DNA from: Cymbomonas tetramitiformis
Taxonomy: Eukaryota > Chlorophyta > Pyramimonadophyceae > Pyramimonadales > Pyramimonadaceae
DNA: 64,000 bases
Assembly (NCBI GenBank): GCA_001247695.2
Contig: LGRX02035483.1
Location: 372,001 to 436,000 of the forward strand
Direction of reading: 5' to 3'
This document shows positions 1-26,740 of the stretch, one piece after another (positions within the stretch are counted from its first letter, which is position 1; each line of letters starts with the position of its first letter). A model generated the notes under the pieces. That model saw nothing but the letters and a program-made list of their open reading frames with translations, was not told where the DNA came from and ran no database searches. The translations under genes were made by a program, and so were the position numbers.

Positions 1-800
1 GCGTGGTGGACAACCGGTGCGCGAAGAACGACCTGAACACAACTTTACTTACCGCCAGCGCACGTTTGGCGCATAGCGACAGCAAACACGAGTTCGATCA
101 AATGTCCACGTCTATATAGTGCGCGATCTCCCACTGGTCACCCTTGAAAAACTCGCCGTGCACGTGTATCACGTTTTCACACAAGAGCTGTCGAGTGGCC
201 ATCAGCCGACCCTTCTACCGGATAAGTGGATATCACCTGTGAGTCGTGATCATTTCTGAGATGGCGCGCGACGACACGCAAATCGACATGCCACTCGTTT
301 CCGACGTTGCAAGCTCGGTGGCACTTACAGAGTCCGTTTTTACAAAGGACGGAAATCCTTAGATCCGTCTTGGCAGCGAGACATTTTGAATATAATTTTG
401 TTTGTACGAACCCAGAACGTCTTCGAGGTACGATTGTTGACGAGGGTGGAGCTCCGTAGGTGACGGTGTGCACATGCTCCACACAATTTGTACGCCGTTT
501 AAGGCGTATTGATAATGAATTCTTGGAGTGTCTGTTGCCATGTCGAGCCTACAATTTCTGTACCTATTATCACAGCGTCCTGCAAAAGCGTGTCGGCACA
601 TACGTGAAAAAGGCGTCTTTGTCTCGACAGACTGCGGATGACTTTGCTTCGCGCGCAACTCTCGGGAGGGAGTTGTCATCAACAGCATACCCTTCATGTA
701 CGGTCATTTCGCTAAGAATATAGACTGGAGCGTGAAGTGGATCCGATTAATGACAATTCTGTCGATCGAACATCCGCGCTAGAGGCGTCTGGCCGCACCT
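1..800. other. Left edge, no confident gene
   Basis: Short open frames exist on both strands (plus 460-723 without an ATG; minus 359-697 with ATG), but none shows a recognisable domain and they overlap each other. A TATA-like stretch lies near 112-118. The frame at 460-723 could be an exon of a spliced gene, since splicing is common in this genome, but no convincing splice site pair was found. Confidence 0.4.
761..771 (-). promoter_or_regulatory. GTTCGATCGAC palindromic motif
   Basis: One reverse-complement copy of an 11-nt motif that recurs just upstream of start codons elsewhere in the window. It lies 30 nt before the ATG at 801 and 87 nt before the in-frame ATG at 858. Function is inferred only from repeated position. 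Confidence 0.45.
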
Positions 801-2033
801 ATGGTAAAGTTAAGAACACGCACGAAATTGCAATCTTCGCATTACATCGACGCGATGGCGGCAAGACGGTATCACAAAATTCAAGCGTGCGTGCAGAGCG
901 ACTGGCGACACTGCAAGCACGCGGATCTTGTGGACGAAGACCGCGCTCTTTCGCATGAACTGGGAGATGTCATCGGTCAGATCTGCATGTACTGGACCGT
1001 TTCCTCCGCTTCTGTTTGTATAGAAAGGTTCGATGCCAGCGTGCGCAACTTTTTGAGCACCTTCATCCACGGCGGTATGGTGAAGCAGACCACTTTTGAG
1101 AGCACGTGCAAAAAGTGTGTGTCGAAAGAGATCGACCAGAGCGAGGTGCTGACGCACTTGGACGCGAATCGCTTTACTTTGAGGAAGGTGTTGTTTTCCG
1201 AGAAGCAGCTGTCCGCTAAAATTTTCCAGGTCATATGCAAGACCTACAAGACGCAACGCAGTCTCAAAAAGACCGCACACAAGATCTCGAGCGTCATCAC
1301 GCAAGACGCGCAAAGGTATATCGATTGCACATCGCGCGAAATCATGCAAACCACGCTCGACATATTGACTCCAAAATGGTGGGAGATTTTTAACGAATTC
1401 GTCGACGAGCTGGAGCAAGGACGCTCTTGTGCTTGGGACCTTCAGTTTCGCCGAGACGTGCTCGAGCGGAAGTTGCGCCAGATCGATACGGTTCTTTTCT
1501 GGAGCTGCAAAGAGGCGATCGACTTAGTTGTCGGGACTATTCTGAGCTGCGGAGACCCGGACTGCAAAGACCCTGCTGAATATTGGAACGCATGCGTCGA
1601 GGGAATAATTTCGAGCGCATTCGCCTTCATCAGGGACAAAGTGTGTCGATCCGCTTCGTGGGTCGTCTGCAATGAAATGAGCGGCGTTAATTGCAGGGTT
1701 CGTTGCGTCGACGAGCGCAAGCGAGCGATCGCGGATTATATCGAGAGCAGACCCTTGGACAACATTCCAACCGAGTCTGCGATTCTGCGCCGGGCTGTGG
1801 CGGTTGTGACCGCACAAGTGTTTCGAGGCGACCTTGACATCAGCTCGGCGAAGAGATTGTACATACGCAGATGCAATCACTGCGATGGCAAGGAGCAAAC
1901 GTACGGCGTTTTTTTGTCTTGCATCAGGTGCAACACGCCTTATTGCTCAGCAGAATGTCAGTACAAGGACTGGAACGATCATAAGCACCGATGCGCCCCT
2001 TATTTCGTCATGAACTGGTCGAGTGACATCTAG
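801..2033 (+). CDS. MYND-type zinc-finger protein
   Basis: 410-aa protein. The last 53 residues form a MYND zinc finger: Cys358-x2-Cys361, Cys374-x2-Cys377, Cys382-x3-Cys386 and His394-x3-Cys398, the usual seven-Cys/one-His order. MYND fingers bind proline-rich peptides and mediate protein contacts, often in transcription or chromatin regulation. The other 350 residues are Cys-rich and helical with no domain I recognise. An in-frame stop lies at 780, so the coding part begins at 801 or at the second ATG (858, Met-Ala-Ala-Arg). A GTTCGATCGAC palindrome sits just upstream and no good TATA box was seen. A MITE-like repeat begins 47 nt after the stop. A regulatory role is inferred from the finger alone. 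Confidence 0.75.
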   Translation: MVKLRTRTKLQSSHYIDAMAARRYHKIQACVQSDWRHCKHADLVDEDRALSHELGDVIGQICMYWTVSSASVCIERFDASVRNFLSTFIHGGMVKQTTFESTCKKCVSKEIDQSEVLTHLDANRFTLRKVLFSEKQLSAKIFQVICKTYKTQRSLKKTAHKISSVITQDAQRYIDCTSREIMQTTLDILTPKWWEIFNEFVDELEQGRSCAWDLQFRRDVLERKLRQIDTVLFWSCKEAIDLVVGTILSCGDPDCKDPAEYWNACVEGIISSAFAFIRDKVCRSASWVVCNEMSGVNCRVRCVDERKRAIADYIESRPLDNIPTESAILRRAVAVVTAQVFRGDLDISSAKRLYIRRCNHCDGKEQTYGVFLSCIRCNTPYCSAECQYKDWNDHKHRCAPYFVMNWSSDI

Positions 2034-2079
2034 CTTTCTTTCGTATCGGCGACGCGTTTTGTGACCTGTTAAAGATGTC

Positions 2080-2243
2080 AAGAGTCGATTTTCCTTTGGT
2101 GTGGGAATTTTGTGGTGGCGATATTCTCACTCGTTACATCGTTTATAACATTATCGCTGCTATGTGTTAATAATGTTATCTTCAAAAACTCGCCGCCAAA
2201 AAGCGTCTAGAAATCCGCATCCTTTACAAAAATTGACTTTTGA
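2080..2243 (+). repeat. MITE-like repeat, copy R1
   Basis: Copy of the roughly 165-bp dispersed family. The left end starts GAGTCGATTTTC and the right end carries CTTTACAAAAATTGAC, an imperfect inverted match of the left. Between them are the conserved blocks TTCTCACTC, TTATAACATTAT, TGTGTTAATAATGT and CTTCAAAAACTCGCCGCCAA. It lies just past the stop of the MYND gene. From 2244 to 2763 I see no gene. Confidence 0.75.
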
Positions 2244-2763
2244 GTGTAGTGACGAAGTGCGCACACTCTGTCGCACTACTTTTAAAGGTACACATACGCA
2301 ATATAGCAAAAGTTACAGGCACTTATACAAAATGGTGCATAGAGCTATTGCACCTGCGAGTCGAGTGATTTTTTTGTGAATGTGAATTTATGTAAAGGTT
2401 TTGACGAGCACTTTCTGCATGCGCGTTTATACGCCCATCGGTGAACTGCGATTCAGATTTTCAGCACGCAACTTGGACAAATTTTCAACCACGACAACAA
2501 GTTTCATAAAGTATACATAAAAAGGTAAATAGATTTTTGAATGTCACCAGATCTTTTCTTGAATCGAGAGAATTGCGTCGACGTACTTTGAATATCGTGT
2601 ACAACTAGAAAGTGCACGAAAGTCGACACGAGCTTTGGGCGAATTGTTTGGCGTTCGATATGTATCAACACGTATATATATTTCCCCCAAAATACGCAGT
2701 ATACCAAAAGTCACAAGCACTTATATGGTGGAATACGGTCTTCTGATGGAGCATATATCGACG

Positions 2764-4329
2764 TTATTTAGTGAGCTCGGTGAACTTTTTCCGAATTTCG
2801 GATTTAAATTTTGAGTCGAGATTTCGATCATTGTGCGTGGCTGTCTCGCCTAACACTTTTGCCTTTTTGCCCACATCTCTGGCTCTTGATGCAAATCTGC
2901 ACCTGTCGTTGCTCATCACGCAGTACTCGTTTTGGTCACACCAATCGATCATTTTGTCAGTCAGTGGACCCGCGTAGGCCGCACCACCATCATCGTTCGA
3001 AAACGTGCATTCCATGGGGTTCCCTGCGGTTTTAGGGTTGCCGGGGCTGCCTTCCACGGCGATGTATTTTTTAGCGGCGTTTGTGACAAATTTCTTCTGC
3101 TCTTCCGTCAATTCGTCGTGCAGGTCTGTGTCAACCGGCTTTTGTATTCCGTCCACGACCGGCTCTTGCTCGGCGTCCTCCGCGCTGGCGGGAAGTTCGT
3201 TCGTGTCCATCGTACGTGACCCAATTTCGTTTAGGACCATTTTTTCTCGTGCTTTAAGCTTTTCCAATTTCTCCTTTTGATATCGTTCGTTTCGTTCTAG
3301 TTTAGCCAACATCTTTCGATTCGCTTCTTCAATTTCCATCTCCTCAAGCTCCATCTGCTTTTGGAGCAGCTGCTGTTCGTGATGCTTAAGTTGCACACTC
3401 TCTTTCGCATCATTCTTTTTACGCGTCAGCTGCTTTCCGTAAACTCTCTTTATGTTTGCAAGTTGCTTTCTATAGTCTTCTGCCTCTTTCAACGCTTGCT
3501 GATGCTTCTTCTTCTGCTCGTCCAATAAGGTTGTTAAGTGATTCAATAGCTTTATGAGACCGCTTTTGGTGAAACCAGCAAGGTATTGGACTAACGTCTT
3601 GGCGTTTCCCCATACGTATTGGTCAAAATATCTTGCCGCAACCTGGGAAAATAGGCTCAAAATCTCTAGGGCGCTCTCGGATTCGTCCTCCTCCTTGGGT
3701 GATGGGTCCATCGTGTCCGAATTGTCATCGTCTTCTTTTTCCTCTGACGGATCGTCGATGTCTTCTTCGAGCTTGTCTTTCGCACGTTCACGAAGTAGCT
3801 TTTCCATCAACTCTTGCTCTTTTTTCACTTGGGCAGCTTGCTGCAATTCGATCTCCTTGTTCAGCATCGCTGTATACTGCCGCGCATCCTCCTTTGCCTT
3901 CTCCAATTTGTTTTTCTCGCGAGCGGTGAGGGCGAGCGCTTTTTCTGTCTCCGTCGTTGCGCATTTGATGACGAGCCGTTTTGTGTCCTCGTCAAGTTTG
4001 AACGACTGATTGTTTTCATTGCTCATGTCCTCCAAAATCGTCAACAGATCTTGGTACTCGTTCCTCTTGTCCGAGCTTTTGAGAATATTACTCAATTGCA
4101 TGAAATGGTGCTTATTCAAGTTCTTGTTCGCACATTTTTTCAAGTATTTGAAAGCGGCGGTCAACGTTTCATCCTTCGACGCTTCGTGAATCGAGGCTTG
4201 CTTGGCTAGAGCGCTTACAAACTTTGTTTGGTTGTTGTTTGATACTGAGATCGGTGACTCGTCCGTCAAAATAACCCGCTTTTCGTGCTCGTCTTCGTCT
4301 ATGACGGAAGGCATCATGCAAACACTCAT
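2764..4329 (-). CDS. Coiled-coil protein with C-terminal Cys cluster
   Basis: 521-aa protein counted from the first real ATG (4329); the frame is open to 4371 but has no ATG there. Roughly residues 125-390 are Glu/Lys/Gln-rich heptad-like sequence typical of a long coiled coil, broken near 195-225 by an acidic Asp/Glu/Ser stretch. Near the C-terminus a short segment has Cys residues in the pattern Met-Glu-Cys, Trp-Cys-Asp, Tyr-Cys-Val and Arg-Cys-Arg, possibly disulfide- or metal-bonded. A TATA box on the minus strand (4405-4413) lies about 75 nt upstream and supports the start. Structural or scaffold role is a guess; I do not recognise a family. Confidence 0.65.
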   Translation of the reverse strand: MSVCMMPSVIDEDEHEKRVILTDESPISVSNNNQTKFVSALAKQASIHEASKDETLTAAFKYLKKCANKNLNKHHFMQLSNILKSSDKRNEYQDLLTILEDMSNENNQSFKLDEDTKRLVIKCATTETEKALALTAREKNKLEKAKEDARQYTAMLNKEIELQQAAQVKKEQELMEKLLRERAKDKLEEDIDDPSEEKEDDDNSDTMDPSPKEEDESESALEILSLFSQVAARYFDQYVWGNAKTLVQYLAGFTKSGLIKLLNHLTTLLDEQKKKHQQALKEAEDYRKQLANIKRVYGKQLTRKKNDAKESVQLKHHEQQLLQKQMELEEMEIEEANRKMLAKLERNERYQKEKLEKLKAREKMVLNEIGSRTMDTNELPASAEDAEQEPVVDGIQKPVDTDLHDELTEEQKKFVTNAAKKYIAVEGSPGNPKTAGNPMECTFSNDDGGAAYAGPLTDKMIDWCDQNEYCVMSNDRCRFASRARDVGKKAKVLGETATHNDRNLDSKFKSEIRKKFTELTK

Positions 4330-4404
4330 GACCGCGTAGTGCGTTTGCGAGAGCGTCGATGAGACGAACACTACGATTGTGGTTTGACAGGACCCGGACC
4401 TACG

Positions 4405-4413
4405 TATTTATAT
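4405..4413 (-). promoter_or_regulatory. TATA box for the coiled-coil gene
   Basis: Minus-strand ATATAAATA, about 75 nt upstream of the ATG at 4329. Confidence 0.55.
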
Positions 4414-4477
4414 GCATTCATCGACTGTTTTCGTGATAACAAAAAAGGTCCGACTTCTGTAAAATCGAAAAACAAAA

Positions 4478-4618
4478 TACGATTTTTTGGACGGGGCATC
4501 CCCACTTGTTACATCAGTTATAATATTGTTGTTACGTGTTACCAATGTAATCTTCAAAAGATCGCTGCCAAAACAAGTCTACAAAAACCCACCCCTTACA
4601 AAAACCGATTCTTAAGAA
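4478..4618 (+). repeat. MITE-like repeat, copy R2
   Basis: Well-conserved right two thirds of the family: CACTTGTTACATC, TTATAATATTGTTG, ACGTGTTACCAATGTAATC, TCGCTGCCAAAACA, and the right terminal CCTTACAAAAACCGA. The left end is diverged. It fills the gap between two minus-strand genes, downstream of the 4612-5295 gene. Confidence 0.75.
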
Positions 4619-5295
4619 GCGCCATCTTGCTCGCCTAGATTCTTTCGATTGACGGTCACGACGTGTGCAGCCCGTATGACGCGTCGAAGTGTGTACAGTA
4701 CGTCTTTGTGGTGCGCCAACGTGCAGGCGATGAAGGTCGAAGAGATTATCGGAGAACACAATCGTCGCCTAGTCTCGAATAGTAAGTCGGTCACGCTCTG
4801 AATGCAACCGTGTATACTCTCCGCGTGCACCGTGATTTCCTCGTGCTCGCATCGCGTGTTTTCTCTTGCCCAATCCATCAACTGAATCATGGCGTGGCCT
4901 CGTTCCATCAAGCCCTTGCATACCGCGTCGATACATAACCAAGCGGCGCACAGATTGCCCTCGTGATCAAGATCTTCGCGATCTATGAGGCAGGCCGTGC
5001 CCGTATAGTCGTCGTGGTACAGTACGCGTGCGTAAGAGGTTGCTACCTCCATGTGGCGACGCGCGGTGTACACGTCATTTTTGGCGCGAGTGACGTATAA
5101 CCTTGGCCTCATTTTTTTGAACTCGTAGACTCGTCTACGTATAGTAAGCTTGTGTATGCGATAAATAACAGCCTCTGCGAGATCGCGCAGCATCTGTAAA
5201 ACGCGCGTAACGTCGTGCTTGCACATTAACTTGTGTATGCTAAACTCAAACTGAGCCTGATTTCGATGAAAAGTGTCCAAAGCGATAGCTTGCAT
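4612..5295 (-). CDS. Unrecognised helical protein, 227 aa
   Basis: 227-aa basic, mostly helical protein with scattered Cys and His (for example His-x-Asp and Cys-Lys-His pairs) but no clear zinc motif and no membrane segment. I do not recognise it. It begins at an ATG at 5295. Its upstream region holds two GTTCGATCGAC palindromes (5372 and 5410) and no obvious minus-strand TATA box, like the SF2 helicase gene, so the two may be co-regulated. The last codons overlap the right end of repeat R2, so the repeat may supply the 3' end. It is divergent from the Cys-rich gene at 5514, sharing a 218-nt spacer. Confidence 0.6.
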   Translation of the reverse strand: MQAIALDTFHRNQAQFEFSIHKLMCKHDVTRVLQMLRDLAEAVIYRIHKLTIRRRVYEFKKMRPRLYVTRAKNDVYTARRHMEVATSYARVLYHDDYTGTACLIDREDLDHEGNLCAAWLCIDAVCKGLMERGHAMIQLMDWARENTRCEHEEITVHAESIHGCIQSVTDLLFETRRRLCSPIISSTFIACTLAHHKDVLYTLRRVIRAAHVVTVNRKNLGEQDGAS

Positions 5296-5371
5296 CGTGA
5301 ACTGGGCGTTGTTTTTATTCGGGTGTTGGTGTTGCCTCGTCTAGAAGAGACTCCTCGAGTCGTGATCGGTT

Positions 5372-5420
5372 GTTCGATCGACAGGGTCTGCCCCTTTTTG
5401 ACTGTGGCTGTTCGATCGAC
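5372..5420 (+). promoter_or_regulatory. Two GTTCGATCGAC motifs
   Basis: Two exact copies at 5372-5382 and 5410-5420, spaced 38 nt. They lie 77-125 nt upstream of the minus gene ending at 5295 and 94-142 nt upstream of the plus gene at 5514, so they could act on either gene of the divergent pair. Confidence 0.55.
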
Positions 5421-5436
5421 ACTTTCTTACAGTTCC

Positions 5437-5444
5437 TATATAAA
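5437..5444 (+). promoter_or_regulatory. TATA box for 5514 gene
   Basis: TATATAAA 70 nt upstream of the ATG at 5514. Confidence 0.6.
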
Positions 5445-5513
5445 TGAACTCTCCAAGCGTCTCACACACCGCACAATCCTTGCATAACGCGCGGGTTTCG
5501 CAGCTCGTGCAAA

Positions 5514-5867
5514 ATGAGTTCCGAAAAAGTGACACCGATTTACTGTGTGTGTCTCACCGCGGATGAGTGCGTCAGTCATATTGTGTGGTTGCCTTGCTTG
5601 ACTTGCATGTCTGTGACTTTCCCTTGGTCGTGCCTGCTCGCTTCTGTGTGTAAAGCTTTCGACGACCGCGTGGAGAGAGCTTTCGCATGCCTAGCGTTTA
5701 CGTGGTGCGATCGACAAGCAAGTTGCGTGATTTGCGGACAAAACATGCGTCGGAGCTATCCGGGCGCATCCGTCCGCATACACGAATTTTTGCGTAGGAC
5801 CTCCGGCGTCGAAGTTGATTTGGCTTGCACGGCGGCGCCGTCGACGCCTAAGATGGTTTCTACTTGA
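5514..5867 (+). CDS. Cys-rich small protein, paralogue A
   Basis: 117 aa. The first 90 residues hold about 12 Cys: a Cys-x-Cys pair near residue 11, a hydrophobic Trp/Leu/Cys-rich stretch (about 25-48) that could sit in or on a membrane, then a Phe-x-Trp-Cys-Asp motif followed by Cys-x2-Cys. The next gene (5988) has the same order of blocks, Cys-x-Cys, a Ser-His pair, a hydrophobic Cys-rich stretch with Thr/Ala-Phe-Pro, then Phe-x-Trp-Cys-Asp, so the two are tandem paralogues. No known family recognised. A TATA box lies 70 nt upstream. Role unknown; secreted or membrane-linked Cys-rich proteins are common viral host-interaction factors, which is only an inference here. Confidence 0.65.
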   Translation: MSSEKVTPIYCVCLTADECVSHIVWLPCLTCMSVTFPWSCLLASVCKAFDDRVERAFACLAFTWCDRQASCVICGQNMRRSYPGASVRIHEFLRRTSGVEVDLACTAAPSTPKMVST

Positions 5868-5987
5868 ACTCGCGTCGAACGTGACGGATTTGCTTTGGGC
5901 GATTTCGTACTTTCCACGTATAGATATCGATAGTCAGAAGATTAACGTGCTTTCACACTTTCAATTTCAAGTATAGAACCCTGCACG

Positions 5988-6311
5988 ATGCGACCGGAGG
6001 ACGATAAATGGGTGTGCTGGTGCACGTGCACAAGAGAGGAGATATTCAGTCACGCGACTTGGTCTTGTTGTGCCGTAGCCATACTGGCTACTTTTCCGTG
6101 CTCTCTTTACGTCTTGTATAGATCCGAACAGTCTGGATCCTGTAACGAGACATGCAATATGATATTTAGATGCTGGAGATTTGAATGGTGCGATCTGAGC
6201 CAAAGAAGATGCCGATGCTGCTGCAAATGTCCACCGGCTCACAAGCAAGCGCGATATGCTAACTCGTTTACGCATCCGATGCAAGCTCCGAGTCGCGTTC
6301 TAGCAGTGTGA
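5988..6311 (+). CDS. Cys-rich small protein, paralogue B
   Basis: 107 aa, tandem paralogue of the 5514 gene, 120 nt downstream. Blocks shared in order: Trp-Cys-Thr-Cys (about residue 11), Phe-Ser-His (about 20), a hydrophobic Cys/Ala/Leu stretch with Ala-Thr-Phe-Pro (about 26-45), then Phe-Glu-Trp-Cys-Asp (about 65-70) followed by a dense Cys cluster. Overall identity is low, so the duplication is old or the pair diverges fast. A weak TATA-like TATAGATA lies near 5920. No family recognised. Confidence 0.65.
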   Translation: MRPEDDKWVCWCTCTREEIFSHATWSCCAVAILATFPCSLYVLYRSEQSGSCNETCNMIFRCWRFEWCDLSQRRCRCCCKCPPAHKQARYANSFTHPMQAPSRVLAV

Positions 6312-6444
6312 CAAACGCGCAGTACTCACAAAGAGTTACGACCTGACGCTCGCACCGGTCATGCCTGATAGCTTACTTGCTCGGTTTTAGCCTACTCCGC
6401 GTGTCAAGAAATTCTTGCAGCAAACATCGAGTAATCAAAAGTAA

Positions 6445-6530
6445 TTCACGTTTGGCGAGTGTGAGGCTTTTGTGCAATGAACATTCTCACTCTTTTCATA
6501 AATTATGATATTAATGTCGTGTGTTGACGA
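6445..6530 (+). repeat. MITE-like repeat fragment R3
   Basis: Partial copy: ATTCTCACTCTTTTCATA, ATTATGATATTAATG and CGTGTGTTGAC match the centre of the family, both ends lost. It is followed at 6566-6612 by a C-run and CGCGCC stretch that may be a decayed member of the CG hairpin family. It lies just past the lipoxygenase stop codon. Confidence 0.5.
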
Positions 6531-6611
6531 CGCGATTTTGATTGATACGAATCGGGCTGTGGTTAGCACGCACGCGGCACCCCCCTCGCGCCCTCGCGCA
6601 AGGGCGCATGC

Positions 6612-8303
6612 TCACCAGGTGATCGAACAAGCCACGCACTTTGGATGTAAATATCGTATGTAAGTCTCTTCGTCTTTCTCTATTTTTTCTGCAATACTCT
6701 GCAGATCGCTTTTTAAGAGATCCACGGCAATGCTGAGTTTTTCACTCAATCGCGTTCTTGCGTGCAAAGTACCGTAACACACCGACTCTCCACTGGTTCC
6801 GACGAGAAGATCGACCAGACAGTCTTGCACGTGTACGCTTGGAAGAATGTGCTCCTTATGGCAAACCCACACGTGCTTTGATTTGATTGCGTCGTCGGTG
6901 TGCTGCGAGTTGGAATACGTTTCGTGAATGACGTTGTTGAAATGCATCATGGTTATCACGTCCGCGAGTGTTCCGACACTCACTCGATCCGTGCACACGT
7001 GGCTTAGAAACGCGACCATCCCGGGATCCTCTTGCAGCGCCGTATCCGTCGGATATGCGTCGCACACGCACGTGTTGACGAACCTCTCCAACGCGCCCCA
7101 CCACAGCTCCAGAGTGCGCATCATGGGCGTGTCGACATTTCCAGTCAAACGTTTGACGGTTGGAAAGTGTAAGATGGATCTAACGTTCCCGTGATGCTCT
7201 ACCATGAGCCGCTCGACAGATCTTGGGGTGATGTTGCTGACGATCGCCGGTATCGAGCTCGGAACGTTGTTCGCTAAAAGCATAGATCCCAGATTCATCG
7301 ATTGCGACGTGCCCAGCATCAACGAGTTGACCAAAGGCATCAGCACGTGATTCGAGCCGGCGGTTTTGCAAAAGTGGTAATTCCACTCGTCGGCCACCAG
7401 CGCGTGCACGAGTCCGAGATGCACGGACCACGTGGCCCACGTCATGAAGGACGAAAGCACTCTCTGAAACTCGGCGTGGTCGCTACGCAAGTTCGATCCG
7501 ACGTAATTTAGGTTCTTGTCGAAGTACGCGTCAACCCCGTGCCTATAATACGTACCATTTGTGCGCTGCATCGCTTCTTCAGGTATGGATACCAAGTAAA
7601 CGCGCTCATCAGAGCCGCTTTGGACGTCGCTGGCGACGGGCCTGAGAAAAGTGCACATGGACGTTCGTTTCATCCACGTAGCAAAGCGATCCGCCGTCGC
7701 GTAATCGGGAAGCTTCGTAAGCACGGGGTCCAACTTGGACGAGCTGGGCTTCCACGAGTACTGTTTCGCAAGAATCGTTTCGTCCGGGAAGGCGTACGGC
7801 ATGTCGTATATGTACTTGTTCGCGACGAGGTTTAGAGCGTGCATGTTTAACTCGCGGAATTCGATATTCTGTACAAATTGATCGGCGCCGAATCTCGCGT
7901 TGATATCAAAAGGCGAAAACGCATTTTTTATTATATGCCACAGTGCCCGCTGGGCTTCGGTAGGTGGTGCCGTATAGGCCTCCGGGCAGAGCTCAAAGCC
8001 TCGAGTGGTCGTGCGCTCTAGAGAGGTTCGGGCTACCTTAGCGCGCGTAAGCTTTCGCAGTATCGAACGAACTATCGTGAGAAGCTCCTGCGTCGATTTG
8101 GTATCGATTTCGCTATATGCTTCGCACGAGAGTTGCGACGTGCTACGCAAAAATTTTATGAAGATCAACTTGTCCCGCTCGCTGTCAGTCACCCAGCACA
8201 TATGTTGTATGCGACGAATTAATTCTAGGTGTCCAGGTTTCAGGTTTAGGGCTGCGCGTTGCGCCTCTGGCAACGCGAGGGTCTCCGAGAATTGGCAAGA
8301 CAT
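6612..8303 (-). CDS. Lipoxygenase (catalytic domain only)
   Basis: 563 aa from the ATG at 8303. Seen in sequence: His295-x4-His300 in the helix that in lipoxygenases carries the first two iron ligands; downstream Asn-His, then Met-Asn-Leu where the family has its Ile-Asn block; a Trp-Trp...Phe-Val...Tyr-Pro-x-Asp...Asp-Pro stretch (about 400-428) matching the family's Trp-Tyr-Asp helix; His460 with Ser464 four residues on, the third and fourth ligand positions (Asn, His or Ser in known enzymes); and a C-terminal Tyr-Leu-x-Pro block ending Ser-Ile-Thr-Trp where the family ends in Ile, whose carboxylate binds iron. The usual N-terminal PLAT domain is missing. Family role: dioxygenation of polyunsaturated fatty acids with non-haem iron. 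The terminal Trp is odd. Minus-strand TATA at 8341-8350 supports this start; an ATG also exists at 8393. Confidence 0.8.
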   Translation of the reverse strand: MSCQFSETLALPEAQRAALNLKPGHLELIRRIQHMCWVTDSERDKLIFIKFLRSTSQLSCEAYSEIDTKSTQELLTIVRSILRKLTRAKVARTSLERTTTRGFELCPEAYTAPPTEAQRALWHIIKNAFSPFDINARFGADQFVQNIEFRELNMHALNLVANKYIYDMPYAFPDETILAKQYSWKPSSSKLDPVLTKLPDYATADRFATWMKRTSMCTFLRPVASDVQSGSDERVYLVSIPEEAMQRTNGTYYRHGVDAYFDKNLNYVGSNLRSDHAEFQRVLSSFMTWATWSVHLGLVHALVADEWNYHFCKTAGSNHVLMPLVNSLMLGTSQSMNLGSMLLANNVPSSIPAIVSNITPRSVERLMVEHHGNVRSILHFPTVKRLTGNVDTPMMRTLELWWGALERFVNTCVCDAYPTDTALQEDPGMVAFLSHVCTDRVSVGTLADVITMMHFNNVIHETYSNSQHTDDAIKSKHVWVCHKEHILPSVHVQDCLVDLLVGTSGESVCYGTLHARTRLSEKLSIAVDLLKSDLQSIAEKIEKDEETYIRYLHPKCVACSITW

Positions 8304-8340
8304 TGCAAAGAGACTCGTCTCCGTACAAGAATCGCGCGCA

Positions 8341-8350
8341 TATTTATATA
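8341..8350 (-). promoter_or_regulatory. TATA box for the lipoxygenase gene
   Basis: Minus-strand TATATAAATA about 40 nt upstream of the ATG at 8303, which favours that start over the upstream in-frame ATGs. Confidence 0.55.
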
Positions 8351-8592
8351 CAAGAGTACACAGAACAAAGGAACCTGCCATCGCGGATTCCATTATAGCA
8401 TGACACGCATGAAAAATAAGCGTTAAGGTATAAATACGCAGTGCTGATACCATTTTTTTGCGCTGACAACAAATCGTACATTTTCTCCCCCTTACGGGGG
8501 GGGAACTTTGTTACGTATGATTTATCCATTTCGCTTGTCCACATGTACACTCTCGTTAAAAAAAGGCTTTGAAGTATGCATGCGTGATCGGA

Positions 8593-9234
8593 CTAACCTG
8601 TCCGCTGACTGGTGCAGACTAAAACTTCTTCTTGCGAGCCTGCGCCGTCCGACTCTGTTGCCGAACACCGCACGTCGTCAAGCAACCATTTCACGACGGT
8701 CCGGTACGTCTTTCGGATTCGCCGCGAATCGAGGATTCCGTGAGATCGGCGATGCTTTAACTCGCGGACCATACCGATATGGTTTTTTTTTGTGGCGATA
8801 TCGATCAGACATAAGTCGAACGCTTTTTGACGGTTCAGAAATTGGTCGATGAATCGAAGGTGGTTGTGATTGCACGCTATAGTGATGGCTCGGGCGACCA
8901 AACGGGGGCATGCGATGTCTTCCGAATGCTTGAGGAAACAGTCAAGTAATTCTACGCTGTTCAGCCTTGCTGCGATCCACAGCAAGGAAACGGTGCGTGC
9001 CGAGATCTGAGGAAGTTGCAATTCCTCAACCAGCTTTTTAATGCACCATACGACCCGATTCTTCTGCCGATCGGACAGATCGGTCTTGGACAGTGTGGCA
9101 TAGCCATCGCATATCGCGCGTTGGGATATTGTCAAGACAGTCTCTTCGTGATCGTCCATGCAATCTGCTTGGCCAGTCTCGTCCGTTTCCGCATACCGGG
9201 ATATGAAGGCATACGTATTTCCTGCGGTTTCCAT
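8593..9234 (-). CDS. Ankyrin-repeat-like protein
   Basis: 213 aa from an ATG at 9234. Residues about 80-170 show three to four repeats of roughly 30-33 residues with the ankyrin helix-turn-helix spacing: Leu-Leu-x-Ile-Ala-Ala-Arg followed by Val-Glu-Leu-Leu-x-x-Phe-Leu, then Ala-Ile-x-Ile-Ala-Cys-x-His-Asn-His, then Asp-Ile-Ala-x-Lys-x-Asn-His-Ile-Gly-Met-Val. The Thr-Pro-Leu-His tetrapeptide is degenerate, as is common in viral ankyrins. The N-terminal 60 residues are acidic. Ankyrin proteins bind other proteins; in large DNA viruses they often recruit ubiquitin ligases or block host signalling, an inference here. No TATA box was seen. Confidence 0.6.
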   Translation of the reverse strand: METAGNTYAFISRYAETDETGQADCMDDHEETVLTISQRAICDGYATLSKTDLSDRQKNRVVWCIKKLVEELQLPQISARTVSLLWIAARLNSVELLDCFLKHSEDIACPRLVARAITIACNHNHLRFIDQFLNRQKAFDLCLIDIATKKNHIGMVRELKHRRSHGILDSRRIRKTYRTVVKWLLDDVRCSATESDGAGSQEEVLVCTSQRTG

Positions 9235-9589
9235 TCTACAAATTATTTTTTACAAGAGAAAGCAAGCGTTGGGAACACAATCTTTAAGAGACGTTGACTT
9301 CTGCGGAATGTGTAAGGGGCGCTTGGGACAGCTGGTGCGGCCCGCGAGCCGCGACGTACATATTCGCGAATTTCAAGGTGTTGTGCGAAACCTGTCGAAT
9401 TTCGCTAGTTTTGACACACACACACCTAACGCAAGCATGTGGACGATGTTGTATGTCTATCTGCGACGCGAAGAGTTGCTTAGATTTTCAATTTGTTTAT
9501 TAGAATTTGTTCATTATAAATATACGAATTGTCCGTAAAACATTAAGGGAAATACGTCATCGTCGAGCTTGATCGTAACCCCGACGAAC
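9235..9589. other. Spacer between divergent genes
   Basis: 355 nt with a TATA box (9515-9522) for the plus-strand gene at 9590. Plus-strand frames here (for example 9158-9538) overlap the start of the ankyrin-like gene and show no domain; not called as genes. Confidence 0.5.
9515..9522 (+). promoter_or_regulatory. TATA box for 9590 gene
   Basis: TATAAATA 68 nt upstream of the ATG at 9590. Confidence 0.6.
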
Positions 9590-10180
9590 ATGGCGGAAAT
9601 CGTGCCAAAGGAAGCGCCAGAACTAACCGAGGACACTACCGAACCCGTCGAAGACATTTCCGAACTCGTCGAGGACACTACCGAACCCGTCAAAGACATT
9701 TCCGAACTCGTCGAGGATGCCAGACCACCATCAAAACGGCCGAGTTACGGAGGCATACTTCGTCACGCCAAAAATACGACTGTTGGTGCAAACACAATAT
9801 TCGACGCAGCCATGCTTATTTACGAGAAGACTCCAGAGAAAAGTTTTAAGTCTTGGATGATGGCACGCGACAAGAATGTCGTGGGCTATACGAACACCAC
9901 GGAATTTAAACTGCAGGCTTGGAGCGATCGTTATCAATTGACCAATTGCGTATATGATCGGCAGATGTGTATCTACATTGTTGAAAAACGCATTTGGAAA
10001 GATTTCTTTTTTGACTATTGTAAAGAAAAAAAGTTGCACTGGGACCACTTTCGCGCGGAGTTCAAGTGTGGAAACGGCTTTTTTGCATCCCTTTTGTGCA
10101 AAACGTTGAAGCAGTGCTTCGTGGTGCACGGACTTGTGGCTCCTGACGACGCATGTGCACGCCATTCGGATCTTGAATAA
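9590..10180 (+). CDS. Protein with acidic N-terminal repeats
   Basis: 196 aa from the first ATG (9590). Residues about 13-41 are two copies of a 14-residue acidic unit (Glu-Asp-Thr-Thr-Glu-Pro-Val...Ser-Glu-Leu-Val), encoded by an almost exact 42-nt tandem repeat at 9628-9711. The remaining 140 residues are a compact Trp/Phe/Tyr/Cys-rich domain of unknown family. The near identity of the DNA repeat suggests recent expansion by slippage or recombination. A TATA box lies 68 nt upstream. A mosaic of repeat fragments (R4) follows. Confidence 0.6.
   Translation: MAEIVPKEAPELTEDTTEPVEDISELVEDTTEPVKDISELVEDARPPSKRPSYGGILRHAKNTTVGANTIFDAAMLIYEKTPEKSFKSWMMARDKNVVGYTNTTEFKLQAWSDRYQLTNCVYDRQMCIYIVEKRIWKDFFFDYCKEKKLHWDHFRAEFKCGNGFFASLLCKTLKQCFVVHGLVAPDDACARHSDLE
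9628..9711 (+). repeat. 42-nt tandem repeat, two copies
   Basis: Two in-frame copies, identical apart from a single base (a Glu/Lys codon change), inside the 9590 gene. Confidence 0.8.
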
Positions 10181-10257
10181 GGAATCGCATGGGAGCGACG
10201 CTCGTAAGACAACCGCTTCGATAACAAGGGATCGTACTTAGTTTTCGAAGTTGGCCC

Positions 10258-10440
10258 ACCTTCACACCGATTGTAATATTATTGCTGGATCAGTTTAAGA
10301 CTCGATTTTCGATAGGTGTGAGAAGTTGCACCCCTGTTTCTGGCAGCGGTATTCTAAAGGTCGTATGGTTAACACATGCCAATAATATTATAATTGACGT
10401 AAAGAGTGAGAACAACACTTACATCAATCAACCCTTAAGT
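10258..10440. repeat. MITE-like repeat mosaic R4
   Basis: Pieces of the dispersed family in both orientations: a forward centre (CACACCGATTGTAATATTAT), a forward left end (AAGACTCGATTTTCGATAGG) and then an inverted centre (GTTAACACATGCCAATAATA, and TAAAGAGTGAGAACA). It looks like one copy inserted into, or recombined with, another. The rest of 10441-10636 has an AATAAA-like A-run but no other feature. Confidence 0.6.
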
Positions 10441-10636
10441 ATCATAAAATGACAATAAAAAATCAACCGTCGGTGAGTAAATTAAATGTGTCGCACGTGT
10501 CGCATGATATGAAATAACCGTGTCGTGAACTACGCGACCTCCGTATCGATCAAAAATGCATTAGGTGCGACACGGACCGCAGTGTAAAACGCGATAGACA
10601 AAACTCGTTTGCTTGTATGAATTTACGTCGTATCTT

Positions 10637-13600
10637 ATGGACGCCCGAGAATTTGAAACGTGTGTCGCTCCGCTCACGCTGCAAGAATTCGACGCACAAA
10701 CGAAAGTGATTTTACTGTCGGCGTCGATCGCGCCAAAAGCGGCTTCGCGTCAATACATTCAGTTCTGTTTAGAGGTGTACGACGTGTGGTGTGCAGTTGT
10801 AAATCGGCGCTCGACGCTCGCGGATGGCATTCTTTCACAGTGCGTAAGAAATCTGATTGAGTGGTACTGGTTCGCGAGGAACGCAAAACAGATCGCTGAG
10901 TATTTAGACTGGATTCTTTCGAAATTCCCCGATGCGGGAGACGTCATCAAGCCCACGCGCGAGGAGCAGTTGCTCGCGTACTTGAAGGGCGAAGCATCAT
11001 TTGCGCGCGGCAGTCAACCGTTTAGCACGCATGTCAAAGCGGCAAATTTCTCCGAGCGGTTCGGTCAATTGGTCAGCGTGGTCGTGCTCGCGAATTCCTT
11101 GATGTCCGTTCATCTGAAAGAGCCGGTCGCGGTCGTCGATCCCTTCTTAGTCCGGCATCTGCAGCTTACGATGGGCGTCGACGACGCCGCGCTGACAAAC
11201 TTGCGGGAGTCGGAGAGAAGTAAAAGTACGATGATCGAGAATTGGTGGTGGTACGAGCAGTGCGTGAACGTGGACCGGCGACCGGAGAGACAGAAGTGTA
11301 AGTGGATGTATCACATCAACAAGTTCTTGACGGAGGAGTACGTCGCGCTGCTGGACGGTGTATGCTACGGCTTCGGCGTGGCGACCACGATCGAGCTATC
11401 GGGTGACCGAGCGGCCTGGTGGAAAGTCAAACGAGAGGATGCCTTAGCGACCGCTAACTTTGTGCGGAGCATGAAGGCCGAGGATAAACGAGCCCTCTCT
11501 CGTACGGGGGGTGCCGAGCATGGAAATGGACTGGCGTACCGTATTCCTGTCAGGATTGGCAGGGAAGGATTTTACGCGTGCGCCGCCGAACGCGAATTGG
11601 ACCTTTGTCGTCTCTTTCACAAGATCACGAACCACATCAGAAAGGGGCGGCGCATAGTCGCGTGGCTGACAGACAAACTCGAACGGGTCACGGCAGCACT
11701 GCGATCTCGCGTTTTCATCGGGGGTGAAGCGATCAAGATGACGAAGTTGGACTTGCGCGAACTTCACGAGTGCGTGATCGGAAGCACGACCGGTGTGTAC
11801 GCGGCCAGATGCTGCACCGTCCGCGCGCCGGAAGCGAAGTGCGTTCTCAGTCACACGCAGAGCGAGAGCTTTGCGGGCATGGTGCAATGTCTGTGCGCGC
11901 TTTTGGACAAGTGGGACTCGAAAGACGTCGATCTAAATCGAGCCTACGAACGTGTACGGGAGTACTGCGACACGCTGTGCAAACTCGGGGTATCGGACGA
12001 TGAGGATCCGCTGTGTGCGACCGGATGCCAATCCCAACGTTCGGACTGTCGTCGGGTGGGTGATTTGGATTCTTTTTTGGACACTCTGGTCCAATCGGAT
12101 CAACTGCAGTGGGTGTGCCCCAACCACGAGCAGCCAATAGCCACTGTTGCGACGGAACTGTCGATCTCACAAGCCGCGAGAACGGAGTTTGATGAGAGGT
12201 ACGTGAAGCTGGTCACCTCCATGTACCCCATGACTTCCGCGAGCCGATCCGACCACGTGGTTCACGGTGTGTATCACGAGCGGAACCTTGAGCAGCCCGC
12301 TCGGGCGTTACCGCCGGCTTCGCATCGTATCCGGGACCGTCTACACATAAACGCGTGTGAATGGACTCTGCCCTTAAAGACTATCACACCCGTGCACCTG
12401 CCTCGTGGTTTGGATCGTCTGTGCCGACGCCGGTACCGACCACTCCCGATCACACTTTCGTCAAACACCGCGGCGGAGGCGCTGATCCAGCGTTACGTGC
12501 ACGAGCACTCGTGCGAACGAGATCGACAGGGGGGCTTGGAAGCCCTCTGCGAACGCGTTACGGAGCGTGCGAGAGCGCCTCACGAGTACTTCGCGAACGC
12601 CTACTGGGAGACGGAAATGAGGTGCATGCGGGAGGAACGTTCACTGTCCTTGCGCACCAACACCCTGGGCGATCATACGGGGCTCATGGAGTTTACTTTC
12701 TGGTTGCGAGAGTTCCTCACCGCGAATCGCAGATGGGTGCGACAGTCCAACATACGACCGTCGGAGAGTCCGCAGTCGCACGACTCGGTCGTCGACGCGC
12801 ACCGAGCCGAGGTGTTCGTGGTTTTCCCCGACGAATTCCGCATCGCTTTCAAGTGCAGCGACGCCGGCGTGAGCAATTGCGTGCTGCTGCCGCCTAAGAA
12901 GTGCGCGTCGGAGAGGTATTTCCTTCACTACTGCTTGGAGGCGGACTGTCGTGTGGACGCGCACGAGCTGATGCGCAGCATGCGAAGCGAGCATCCCGCG
13001 TGGGAATGGTTCTATCACGTCGACGCCCTCGGTGGGAAGCATTTTAGGATTAGAAAGGCGCGTGATGTTGATCTGATCGCGTTGGTCGGAGCCGACAACG
13101 TGTCCGCATGTTTCCTCGAGAGCGAAGCTCTCGACGTTCGACAGCCCGAGTTTGTCCCAGGAGCCGTGCTGTTCACCGACTCCCTCGGACGATTTGCACG
13201 ATTCGTCTTTTGGGGACTGGTGCAATCGATGGCTGCGGATGAAGACAAAGCGTGGAGCGCGCTGGTACCCAGAGATGCCCTTCACAATCTACCGGTCAGT
13301 TGGGATGTTACCTCAGGGAGCACGATGGATGACGGAGATGACACCCGTCCAGTCAGCGCGGCGGATCCGTGTTGGCGCGAGTATTTATTCTGGGTCACGA
13401 TAGAGTTGCAGCGCATCATCCTGCTCATGAAACCTTGCAACATGGGACCGAGGATATCCGGTTCAGGCCTGCAGATCATGAGCACCGACCGAGTCTACAA
13501 CGGACACTCCGTGGCTTCGATACTCTTCGGTGTGCATCACTCCAAGAAAGAGCGCACCAAGAAAGTTGTGCGACCCAACAGTTACCTCAACAGCCGATGC

Positions 13601-16306: not shown

Positions 16307-16404
16307 ATATCGCTTTGGGGGACACGGTCGTGCGAGGGCGCGCTTTCCGAGTGTAACTAGAGATTTATGTAATCTACATCCGCCTGTTCGTATTTAAAAT
16401 GATT

Positions 16405-16510
16405 TGACACTCGATCTTTGGTTCTTCGATGTGAGATTTTCGTGGTGGTGACATAATCGAACTCGTATTTTTTGCTCACATCTGTCGTAACAGCGTTACG
16501 CGAGACGACA
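16405..16510 (+). repeat. MITE-like repeat fragment R5
   Basis: Decayed copy: ACACTCGATCTTTGGTTC at the left, GATTTTCGTGGTGGTGACAT, and CTCACATCTGTCGTAAC. It lies past the 3' end of the giant gene. The rest of 16307-16770 holds no gene I can support. Confidence 0.45.
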
Positions 16511-16770
16511 CAAGGTTTTTAGGAGAAGTAGGTCGCATTTCGACGTGTCGGTACTGCAAGTTATTCTTCCAAGTTCGGTAGACCCGGTATATCCACCAAA
16601 TGCTCTTGGTTGTTACCCTCCAGTTGTTCCGCTCACACCAACACCAAGGCGAAATACGTGAACGGCAAGAACTTGCGCGCGAGGTCATTCGCATCGCATG
16701 TACTGCACGTGTACAACAGACTTGTGTTGCGCACTAATCGCACGCCTCGTCGTTTGTCGAGCTCGCGAAG

Positions 16771-17895: not shown

Positions 17896-17976
17896 TTCCC
17901 CGTCGCGCCTAATTGATTCGTAGGTCGACAAAACACTGAGGTTCCTGTTTGATTTTTAGGGCGTTTTGTTATCCAC

Positions 17977-17986
17977 GTATATATAC
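17977..17986 (-). promoter_or_regulatory. Palindromic TATA element
   Basis: GTATATATAC, 82-91 nt upstream of the minus gene (17895) and about 180 nt from the plus gene at 18168. It could serve either strand; distance favours the minus gene. Confidence 0.5.
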
Positions 17987-18167
17987 ACTTTCGACGATTG
18001 AGACGAACTGGTCATTCAATGAAAATTAAGGGGAAAGCGTTTGTTTTTTTGCGTTTGGCGGAAACAGACAAACGGCGAGAACGATCCTTATCGCATTGAT
18101 ATTTCGTCTTGTCGCAGTTCGGTTTTTACCGAGGTAGGACACGATATACATCATCTCATCGTTCGTG

Positions 18168-24762: not shown

Positions 24763-26740
24763 ATGCGGCCTCCAACCTACGTGTGCAAGCCGAGGACGAC
24801 GAAGATAAGCGAGTACATGCTCGGTGTGATGGTCACGGATTTAAAATTCTTGATAAAAAAGATGCACGTCGACAAGAACTACGGACACGAGGACAAAATA
24901 GAGGAGATAACGACTTTACTGCTTCGGGCTGTCATCGAGCCATGCCAACACCTGGATGTGGGAAGCTATTTGTTTCTTATCACAAACCGAACCTACAGGT
25001 ACGGTTACGACGAGAGTCAAGGAACGTACATCATGTACCGCTTCGACGGAGCCAGATGGACTTGCTACGGAGCCAAGGAAAACTTTGAATGTGAAGCGCA
25101 AGAATTTCTCACGGAGGTGATTCAGGATCTCTATTTGAAGTGGAAGGAGTACGTGCGTAGCGCTAAAGGCTGGCAACGCTGGATCACGCTGTACTGCGCG
25201 CGCATGAAAGTGGATGTCGCGAACGCCACGAAAAAAGAACGGGACTCTATACGAGGAGACGTGCGAAGAATCTTGTCCAAGTTTGATACCATCAAATCCC
25301 TGTATCACTTGATGGCCAAAGAAGCCGGTGAGTTCACGCGTTCGTCCGTCCACCGCTCGCTTTTTTTTCATCTCGGCGCGTTTCCTTAACGGGTAGGGTG
25401 ATTTTCTACGCGTCTTCGCAGGCATATCTCAAGTGATCAAATCCTGCGAGAAAAAAATGAAATCTAGCACCGTTTGCCTAAACAATGACATGCTCACTCC
25501 GGAGCGGTTTTCTCGCAGCCTGGATGAGGACGACTTTTTGATAGGTTTCGACAACGGCGTGTACAACCTGTCGGAAAATCGATTTTACGGTAGGTATAAG
25601 GTGCCAATACATTACTTTGTGTCTATGTCGGTGGGATACGATTACGAGGTTATGTCGAACGAGATGCAACAGGTTATAAAGGAGGTGGACGACATGGTGT
25701 ACAATCGAATATTTCCGTACGTAGTCGATAGAGCGCAAGTGCAAGCGGTCGTGGGGAGCTTGTTATCCATCGGAAATCCCATGAAGAAGCTGGTACTACT
25801 TTTGGGCGAGGTGCGCGGTTCACCACCGCATCGTGCGCTCTCCCGCACCGATCACACCACGCGCGTGACTGAGCAGTGCAGATGGCCGTGCGTGATGCAG
25901 GGGGACAACGGCAAAAGCGCCTTCGTCAGCAAGCTGTTGAAATACACGTTGGGGGATTACTTTGGGAGCATGCCGGTGCAAGTCATCACGGAGCGCCGGG
26001 AAGCTGCCGACGGATGCAACCCCAGTCTATGCGCGAATCGCAAAAAACGCTGTCTCGCTCTGAACGAAGGCGACAGACGTATGCGCCTGAACAGTGGCAT
26101 GACAAAAACGTTGACCGGAAACGACGAGATCCAGTTTAGAAATCTGTACAGACAACCGGTCAGTGCTCGCTTCCACGCGACTCTACTGTACCTTTCCAAC
26201 GTAGCGCCGGAACTGGAATCCGGTCAGGCTCTTCAAAACAGATCGTATCCGATTGACTGTGTGTCCACGTTCGAGGCAGGGCAAAGCGCGGATGATCCGG
26301 AAAACAAAACGTATCGACGCATTTCTGACACGGATTTCGCCAGGCGGTGTCAGAAATGGAAGATGGCCCACATGCACATGGCGATTCAATGGTGGCAAAC
26401 CTTATATGCGAACGATTTTGTTTTGCCGCCTGTGCCCGTCGTATCGCGAGCCAAAGATCTGCTGAACGAGCGAAGCGAGGATGGTTTATTCAAGGTGTGG
26501 ATGGAGGAAACTTTTGAGCGCATAAAGAACCCTCCCTCAAGATCGGAGGAAGTCATTCAAGTGTCGCACATTCGCGCTGCCTACAACTCGCAGTTGGTCG
26601 ATTCGGAACATAAGTTTAGGAGTGAAGCGGAATGTAAACGCGCGATACGGCGGTGCACCGAGGTGATCGTGAAGGATCAACAGCGCATAGGAAATCGCAA
26701 CCTGCGGAACTTTGTGTACGTAAGAAAGTGTCAAATGTAG
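24763..26740 (+). CDS. D5-like SF3 primase-helicase, three exons
   Basis: Exons 24763-25327, 25422-25810 and 25901-26740 give 597 aa. The N-terminal 318 residues match the D5_N region (a Phe-Asp-Gly-x-Arg-Trp motif, then an Asn-Gly-Val-Tyr-Asn-Leu turn). Exon 3 holds the SF3 helicase: P-loop with Lys323-Ser324, motif B Cys-Leu-Ala-Leu-Asn-Glu (369-374), a Leu-Thr-Gly-Asn-Asp-x-Ile-x-x-Arg segment, and motif C ending Ser-Asn (417-418). Family role: replicative hexameric helicase at the fork. The polymerase-type primase domain found at the N-terminus of longer relatives is absent. The second intron falls inside the P-loop and keeps the frame open, so an unspliced reading would look intact but have a broken ATP site. 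Divergent from the SF2 helicase. Confidence 0.88.
25328..25421 (+). other. Intron 1 of D5-like gene
   Basis: 94 nt, donor GTGAGT, acceptor CTTCGCAG, phase 1, with CCTTAAC as a branch-point candidate and a T-run. Exon 1 runs into an in-frame stop at 25387-25389 if the intron is kept, and the next exon is in another frame. Confidence 0.85.
25811..25900 (+). other. In-frame intron 2 of D5-like gene
   Basis: 90 nt, donor GTGCGC, acceptor GATGCAG, phase 0. It contains no stop. It separates the two halves of the P-loop, which in this family are always contiguous; the 30 residues it would encode are Arg/Ser/Thr-rich and unlike the family. Confidence 0.85.

What the first reader, a model, noticed from the sequence alone, without database searches (positions are those of the whole stretch)
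6612..8303. Virus-encoded lipoxygenase with a Trp C-terminus
The 563-aa protein has the lipoxygenase ligand set in order: His295-x4-His300, His460 with Ser464, and a C-terminal Tyr-Leu-x-Pro...Ser-Ile-Thr-Trp block aligned to the family's C-terminal Ile. The Trp-Trp/Phe-Val/Tyr-Pro-x-Asp helix also fits. It lacks the PLAT domain. Established: lipoxygenases make oxylipins. Inference: the virus alters host lipid signalling or membranes. I know of no well-described viral lipoxygenase, and a terminal Trp as carboxylate ligand is unusual.
Basis: partly seen in the sequence, partly recalled or inferred. Interest (0 to 1): 0.92.

Follow-up and report, generated by a model that had tools for sequence, protein, structure and literature searches.

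The report
Divergent lipoxygenase homologue in algal virus element
A virus-like stretch of DNA in the genome of a green alga carries a very distant relative of lipoxygenases, the enzymes that oxidise fatty acids, with the metal-binding residues kept but an unusual last residue, so it gives a concrete candidate for testing whether viruses can encode this enzyme.

Summary
The ORF is real, on the minus strand (8303-6612, 563 aa). H295-x4-H300, H460-x3-S464-N-x-Q467 and a terminal Trp before the stop occur in 11 of 11 loci of the own genome. The family was found nowhere else: all five database hits are copies in this genome. Pfam finds nothing. Local profile-profile comparison with 15 or 45 lipoxygenases gives 85-90% probability, far above 200 column shuffles, and pairs the His, Ser and Gln with the lipoxygenase positions. 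A family-only AlphaFold model is poor (pLDDT 39), yet Foldseek ranks 36 lipoxygenase chains first. The window lies on contig C25294, very probably of Cymbomonas tetramitiformis, amid dense, mostly orphan frames with a divergent family-B DNA polymerase and a D5-like helicase: probably a large endogenous virus-like element, its kind undetermined, no capsid gene seen. Best explanation: a highly divergent lipoxygenase homologue under purifying selection (dN/dS about 0.2), probably an iron dioxygenase using the Trp carboxylate. [quoted passage not shown]

The parts
6612..8303 (-). lipoxygenase-like protein, 563 aa (longer 613-aa reading from 8453)
7404..7421 (-). H295-x4-H300, aligned to the first two iron-ligand histidines of lipoxygenases
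   Evidence: hhalign blocks; 11 of 11 loci; coordinates checked
6903..6926 (-). H460, S464 and Q467, aligned to the lipoxygenase block H-x3-N-x2-Q (third His, fourth ligand position, Gln)
   Evidence: hhalign block; MAFFT
6612..6650 (-). C-terminal LHPKCVACSITW and stop; Trp563 takes the place of the terminal Ile
   Evidence: 116 of 120 listed plant enzymes and 3 of 5 bacterial ones end in Ile
8593..9234 (-). neighbouring frame conserved beside two other copies (C20845, C1675); not scanned against Pfam
5988..6311 (+). small Cys-rich neighbour conserved beside two other copies (C20845, C1675)
25433..26740 (+). D5-type primase-helicase-like protein, a type common in viruses
   Evidence: D5_N 23.1 bits against a cut-off of 22.4, DUF5906 25.2 against 27.6; PDB: ASFV C962R, E 0.015
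801..2033 (+). MYND-finger protein of the same stretch
   Evidence: conserved near the copies on C20845 and C1675

Best explanation
The gene encodes a very divergent member of the lipoxygenase fold, carried by a large endogenous DNA-virus-like element of the green alga Cymbomonas. Most likely it works as a lipoxygenase does: H295, H300 and H460 and the main-chain carboxylate of the last residue hold one iron, Ser464 sits at the weak fourth position, and the enzyme adds O2 to a polyunsaturated fatty acid or lipid of the alga. Because the ligand is the carboxylate and not the side chain, a Trp can serve if its pocket is adapted. Shown: homology, register of the residues, conservation in all copies, purifying selection, and virus-like surroundings. 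Inferred: iron binding, catalysis, substrate and the role in infection (membrane or oxylipin changes).
For: Local hhalign probability 85.0 (score 56.7) against 15 lipoxygenases and 90.0 (60.9) against 45; 200 column shuffles against the 15-row profile reach at most 27.3, and the reversed alignment 14.8 and 14.3. H295, H300, H460, S464 and Q467 fall on the lipoxygenase H, H, H, N and Q (read from the printed blocks). MAFFT with 4 bacterial and 12 plant enzymes gives the same and pairs W563 with the terminal Ile. Foldseek of the family-only model: ranks 1-36 are lipoxygenase chains, first other chain at rank 37 with E 1.3. Sub-threshold hits in the PDB: 3 of 3 are ALOX15B for the single protein; 9 of 14 are lipoxygenases for the family profile. 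Motifs in 11 of 11 loci; dN/dS 0.20. Element: 86% of the window lies in non-overlapping frames of 100 codons or more, against 20-41% in ten shuffles of its first 20 kb; DNA polymerase B (E 8.2e-16) 28 kb away on the same contig; C20845 keeps the gene order over window 783-19277, most proteins at 52-81% identity, one at 38%.
Against: No lipoxygenase match in Pfam, NCBIfam or PHROGs. In the family-profile search of the PDB five ribosomal L18a/L20 rows appear, two of them (E 0.011, 0.023) above the best lipoxygenase at 0.04. Global-mode hhalign is weak: 47.6% with 45 lipoxygenases and 0.1% with 15. Models have pLDDT 39 and 47, so the iron site was not seen; the Foldseek superpositions behind one search are poor (TM 0.18-0.25) and only rank 1 is below E 0.001. 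The terminal residue is not Ile or Val, which one paper takes as defining (PMC10653942, passage). MAFFT with plant enzymes alone puts H295/H300 right in only 3 of 120 single pairings and 0 of 150 combinations. PMC13246792 (passages) states that no functional lipoxygenase gene has been detected in viruses. The family is known from one genome only.
Confidence: 0.6

Rival explanations
1. A lipoxygenase-derived protein that keeps the metal-site residues but has lost or changed its activity, for example a pseudo-enzyme or a metal protein with another substrate.
For: Very low similarity (14-17% identity in the aligned columns), Trp instead of Ile, Ser at the fourth ligand position, and the negative result that the title of Gehring 2018 reports for another viral lipoxygenase-like protein (citation).
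Against: All ligand positions and the exact C-terminus are fixed in 11 of 11 loci although the uninterrupted copies differ down to 42% identity, which fits a working metal site.
Confidence: 0.3
2. Not viral: a gene of the alga or of a cellular mobile element that spread in the genome.
For: 11 loci in one assembly; in 6 loci the similarity is split into blocks, and in a near-identical group of four the split fits an 82-base GTAAGT...TCGCAG intron; no capsid gene was recognised; window G+C (42-58% in 2-kb steps) is near the 51.4% of the assembly, whereas PMC10675990 reports virus fragments about 10 points below their flanks.
Against: The window copy and four others are uninterrupted; dense, mostly orphan frames with a DNA polymerase B and a D5-like helicase; a second stretch with the same gene order; the PF00305 matches elsewhere in the genome are a different set and score low with the family profile.
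Confidence: 0.15
3. An unrelated helical protein whose motifs match lipoxygenases by chance.
For: No library match, weak global-mode comparison, low-confidence models.
Against: Shuffle and reversal controls; the first 36 Foldseek hits with no lipoxygenase row in the alignment; colinear order of all motifs including the end.
Confidence: 0.04

Closest known systems
Lipoxygenase family PF00305 (e.g. the Acaryochloris and Pantoea plasmid enzymes)
   Same: Order and register of H-x4-H, H-x3-N/S-x2-Q and the end block; the W-x-A-helix with Y-x-x-D
   Different: 14-17% identity, below Pfam detection, terminal Trp, Ser at the fourth position, no PLAT domain detected
Human ALOX15B (15-lipoxygenase-2)
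   Same: The three PDB hits at E up to 10 for the single protein are all this enzyme, E 0.73-0.78, over a 36-residue stretch. That it also has Ser at the fourth ligand position is recalled, not checked here
   Different: Ends in Ile and has a PLAT domain (both recalled); the sequence match alone is not significant
Viral lipoxygenase-like protein of Gehring 2018 and 'putative lipoxygenase' of Mimiviridae
   Same: Lipoxygenase-like proteins from viruses (title in a reference list; table passage of PMC10598087)
   Different: Sequence relation to this family was not tested; Gehring 2018 is not held
Endogenous virus elements of Cymbomonas: CtGEV and the mirusvirus-like CHeCMEs (PMC10675990, text parts 1-3 of 5 read)
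   Same: Virus elements of the same alga
   Different: Whether contig C25294 belongs to either is not known; a heliorhodopsin search did not complete

Membership tests
Lipoxygenase (PF00305) | Match to the Pfam model above its cut-off | tested here: not met
   0 families for the window protein; 0 of 5 members match it
Lipoxygenase (PF00305) | Significant profile homology over the catalytic domain | tested here: met
   local hhalign 85-90% probability, all 200 shuffles lower; global mode is weak (47.6% and 0.1%)
Lipoxygenase (PF00305) | Two ligand histidines as H-x4-H in the first long helix | tested here: met
   register; 11 of 11 loci; plant-only MAFFT mostly misses it
Lipoxygenase (PF00305) | Third ligand His with Asn, His or Ser four residues on, then Gln | tested here: met
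   H460, S464, Q467 on H448, N452, Q455 of Acaryochloris; right in 84 of 120 single plant pairings; Ser as an accepted residue is recalled
Lipoxygenase (PF00305) | C-terminal Ile or Val (named as defining in PMC10653942) | tested here: not met
   Trp in 11 of 11 loci. Two of five annotated bacterial members also lack Ile (end in Gly and Thr)
Lipoxygenase (PF00305) | C-terminus in register to offer its carboxylate to the metal | tested here: inconclusive
   W563 pairs with the terminal Ile and in 116 of 120 single plant pairings; hhalign stops one residue earlier; no geometry
Lipoxygenase (PF00305) | Predicted lipoxygenase fold | tested here: inconclusive
Lipoxygenase (PF00305) | Dioxygenase activity on polyunsaturated fatty acids | not testable with these tools
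   needs an enzyme assay
Large dsDNA virus element | Dense long frames with viral-type replication genes | tested here: met
   introns elsewhere in the element were not tested
Large dsDNA virus element | Capsid and packaging genes | tested here: inconclusive
   none recognised among 28 window ORFs and 30 flanking ORFs given to Pfam; 144 of 501 kb of the contig read

The most novel reading that the evidence does not exclude
This is a first clade of working viral lipoxygenases: an endogenous large DNA virus lineage of prasinophyte algae carries an iron dioxygenase whose metal is held by the carboxylate of a terminal Trp, a ligand residue I found no report of, and uses it to oxidise host lipids during infection.
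Probability: 0.35. Interest if true: 0.88.

Novelty: new variant of a known kind. Interest (0 to 1): 0.72.

Why it matters
Whether viruses encode working lipoxygenases is open: a 2026 paper states that none has been detected and cites a study whose title reports a negative test (passages). This family offers a candidate with every assumed metal-site residue fixed in 11 loci. If active, it would put oxylipin or lipid-peroxide chemistry under viral control in marine algae, and it would show that the terminal Ile/Val rule used to pick lipoxygenases misses real ones.

Tried and rejected
Pfam (window protein and 5 family members), NCBIfam (4 proteins) and PHROGs (window protein) gave no lipoxygenase. 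Viral-contig scans with this family, with lipoxygenase alignments and with the polymerase found no confirmed relative; the patterns are strict, so this is weak absence. Phage records: none for this protein or for the Acaryochloris enzyme. Two genome-contig scans for bacterial lipoxygenases found none confirmed.

AlphaFold with five family rows and with one plant lipoxygenase added gave poor models; the second is biased, since the plant row was chosen because it aligned in the expected register. A column-mapping script printed wrong residue pairs; I read the register from the hhalign blocks instead. A 7-row alignment was misaligned and not used. In some searches apparent successes paired H295/H300 with the wrong helical turn of the plant enzymes; one search corrected the criterion. 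No tree was built: at this divergence it would not place the family. The family profile scores a Pantoea plasmid lipoxygenase (22.8 bits) above the alga's own exons (11.4 and less), but exons are short, so this neither supports nor excludes capture from the host. Five of nine plasmid records with lipoxygenases were fetched.

Full report
What is there. The finding's interval holds a 563-aa frame on the minus strand (8303-6612); a longer start at 8453 gives 613 aa. Five proteins match in the 5.8-billion database (7,996 candidates scored): the window's own, one from EukProt at 73% and three 'hypothetical proteins' of Cymbomonas tetramitiformis at 41-52% (the same five with the family profile). 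The window is G000:C25294:372001-436000 of an 851.7-Mb assembly in 25,745 contigs. Four of the five proteins are found letter for letter in loci of this genome, and the first 443 of 519 residues of the fifth. The contig lengths given for the Cymbomonas proteins P0003, P0004 and P0005 (63,940, 50,102 and 293,250) equal those of C8756, C16261 and C15415. So G000 is very probably the Cymbomonas assembly, and the family is known from this one genome only.

Conservation. The own genome has 11 loci of the family, a lower bound by the tool's note: five uninterrupted and six split into blocks, one of these with a stop inside a block. All 11 keep V-H-x-G-x-x-H, H-x-x-Y-S-N-x-Q and an end L-x-P-x-x-V-[AT]-C-[SA]-I-[TS]-W directly before a stop. 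Four of the loci are 99.6-100% identical, so these are about eight distinct versions. Window versus C20845 copy: 563 codons, 74% identical residues, dN 0.165, dS 0.823. The other nine pairs of uninterrupted copies have 42-57% identity and dS that is above 1 or not calculable.

Is it a lipoxygenase? Pfam, NCBIfam and PHROGs do not say so. Single-sequence search of the PDB gives three hits up to E 10, all ALOX15B, E 0.73-0.78. The family profile gives 14: nine lipoxygenases (E 0.04-0.77) and five ribosomal L18a/L20 rows, two of which lead the list with E 0.011 and 0.023 at the N-terminus. The decisive test is profile against profile in local mode: 85.0% probability and E 6.3e-6 with 15 lipoxygenases, 90.0% and E 1.6e-6 with 45 (E-values are for one comparison); 200 column-shuffled versions of the family reach at most score 27.3 and 1.35% against the 15-row profile, where the real score is 56.7; the reversed alignment scores 14.8 and 14.3. 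Global mode is weak: 47.6% with 45 rows and 0.1% with 15. The family side had nine rows, some of them pieces or parts of one another. The printed local alignment pairs H295, H300, H460, S464 and Q467 with H249, H254, H448, N452 and Q455 of the Acaryochloris enzyme, and MAFFT with four bacterial and twelve plant enzymes does the same and pairs W563 with I583. Plant enzymes alone align less well at H295/H300: right in 3 of 120 single pairings and 0 of 150 combinations (first plant row checked), while H460/S464 is right in 84 of 120 and the C-terminus pairs with the terminal Ile in 116 of 120.

The terminal Trp. Of the 120 listed plant enzymes (of 3,145 found) 116 end in Ile, the rest in R, R, N and E; of five plasmid-borne bacterial ones three end in Ile, one in Gly and one in Thr. 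None ends in Trp; animal and fungal enzymes were not counted. PMC10653942 (passages) treats terminal Ile or Val as defining. Since the ligand is the main-chain carboxylate, a Trp is chemically possible (established knowledge of the family plus inference).

Surroundings. In the window 86% of bases lie in non-overlapping frames of 100 codons or more, and 77-95% in the eight flanking pieces, against 20-41% in ten shuffles of the first 20 kb. Of 28 window ORFs given to Pfam a MYND finger, leucine-rich repeats and D5_N passed their cut-offs. Of 30 flanking ORFs one is a family-B DNA polymerase at contig 347,455-350,460 (E 8.2e-16), one an FHA-RING protein; Rpb1-type repeats, a Kdo-kinase-like match and two marginal matches in one further protein also passed cut-offs. 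The polymerase is far from solved ones (best E 7.5e-9, DNA polymerase II). Contig C20845 carries the same gene order over window 783-19277; C1675 shares part of it; no other window proteins were found in 20 kb around the copies on C15415, C8756 and C4. This looks like a large DNA-virus element. Capsid genes were not recognised in the 144 of 501 kb read, and its relation to the elements described in PMC10675990 (text parts 1-3 of 5 read) is open. The genome has PF00305 matches on C2649, C5865 and C14553, which score low with the family profile.

Prior reports. PMC13246792 (passages) says no functional lipoxygenase gene has been detected in viruses and cites Gehring 2018, whose title reports a negative test; that paper is not held. 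PMC10598087 (passages) lists a 'putative lipoxygenase' in the cloud of Mimiviridae. The listings of searches showed no title on this family (one search listed 20 of 91); subscription journals are mostly not held.

Judgement. Lipoxygenase ancestry: about 0.93. Carried by a virus-like element: about 0.85. Working dioxygenase: about 0.6. Because the Pfam cut-off and the Ile/Val criterion are not met, I call it a lipoxygenase homologue that probably works like one, not an established lipoxygenase.

Noticed in passing
L007:2560-2641 (C4); L006, L008 and L011 are near-identical there: Four near-identical copies of the family (99.6-100% DNA identity over 2,044 bases) share a frame break that fits an 82-base intron GTAAGT...TCGCAG; the window copy has none there. 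Recent amplification, and possibly nuclear expression.
   Followed up: partly
L038:5455-8460 (C25294:347455-350460): A very divergent family-B DNA polymerase frame of 1002 aa; no relative confirmed in viral contigs with strict patterns. May mark an undescribed virus lineage.
   Followed up: partly
L035:578-3320 (Pantoea ananatis plasmid NZ_CP054911.1): An annotated bacterial lipoxygenase lies directly before genes annotated lysozyme and lysis protein, a phage-like arrangement.
   Followed up: no
window 36104-38338: 744-aa leucine-rich-repeat protein with weak matches to plant disease-resistance LRR models.
   Followed up: no
window 5514-5867 and 5988-6311: Two small Cys-rich frames beside the gene; both have counterparts at the C20845 copy and the second also at C1675.
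   Followed up: no
L039:1875-3521: FHA plus RING-finger protein in the same stretch of the contig.
   Followed up: no
L033 and L034: Two annotated bacterial lipoxygenases end in Gly and Thr, not Ile; the terminal-Ile rule has other natural exceptions.
   Followed up: no
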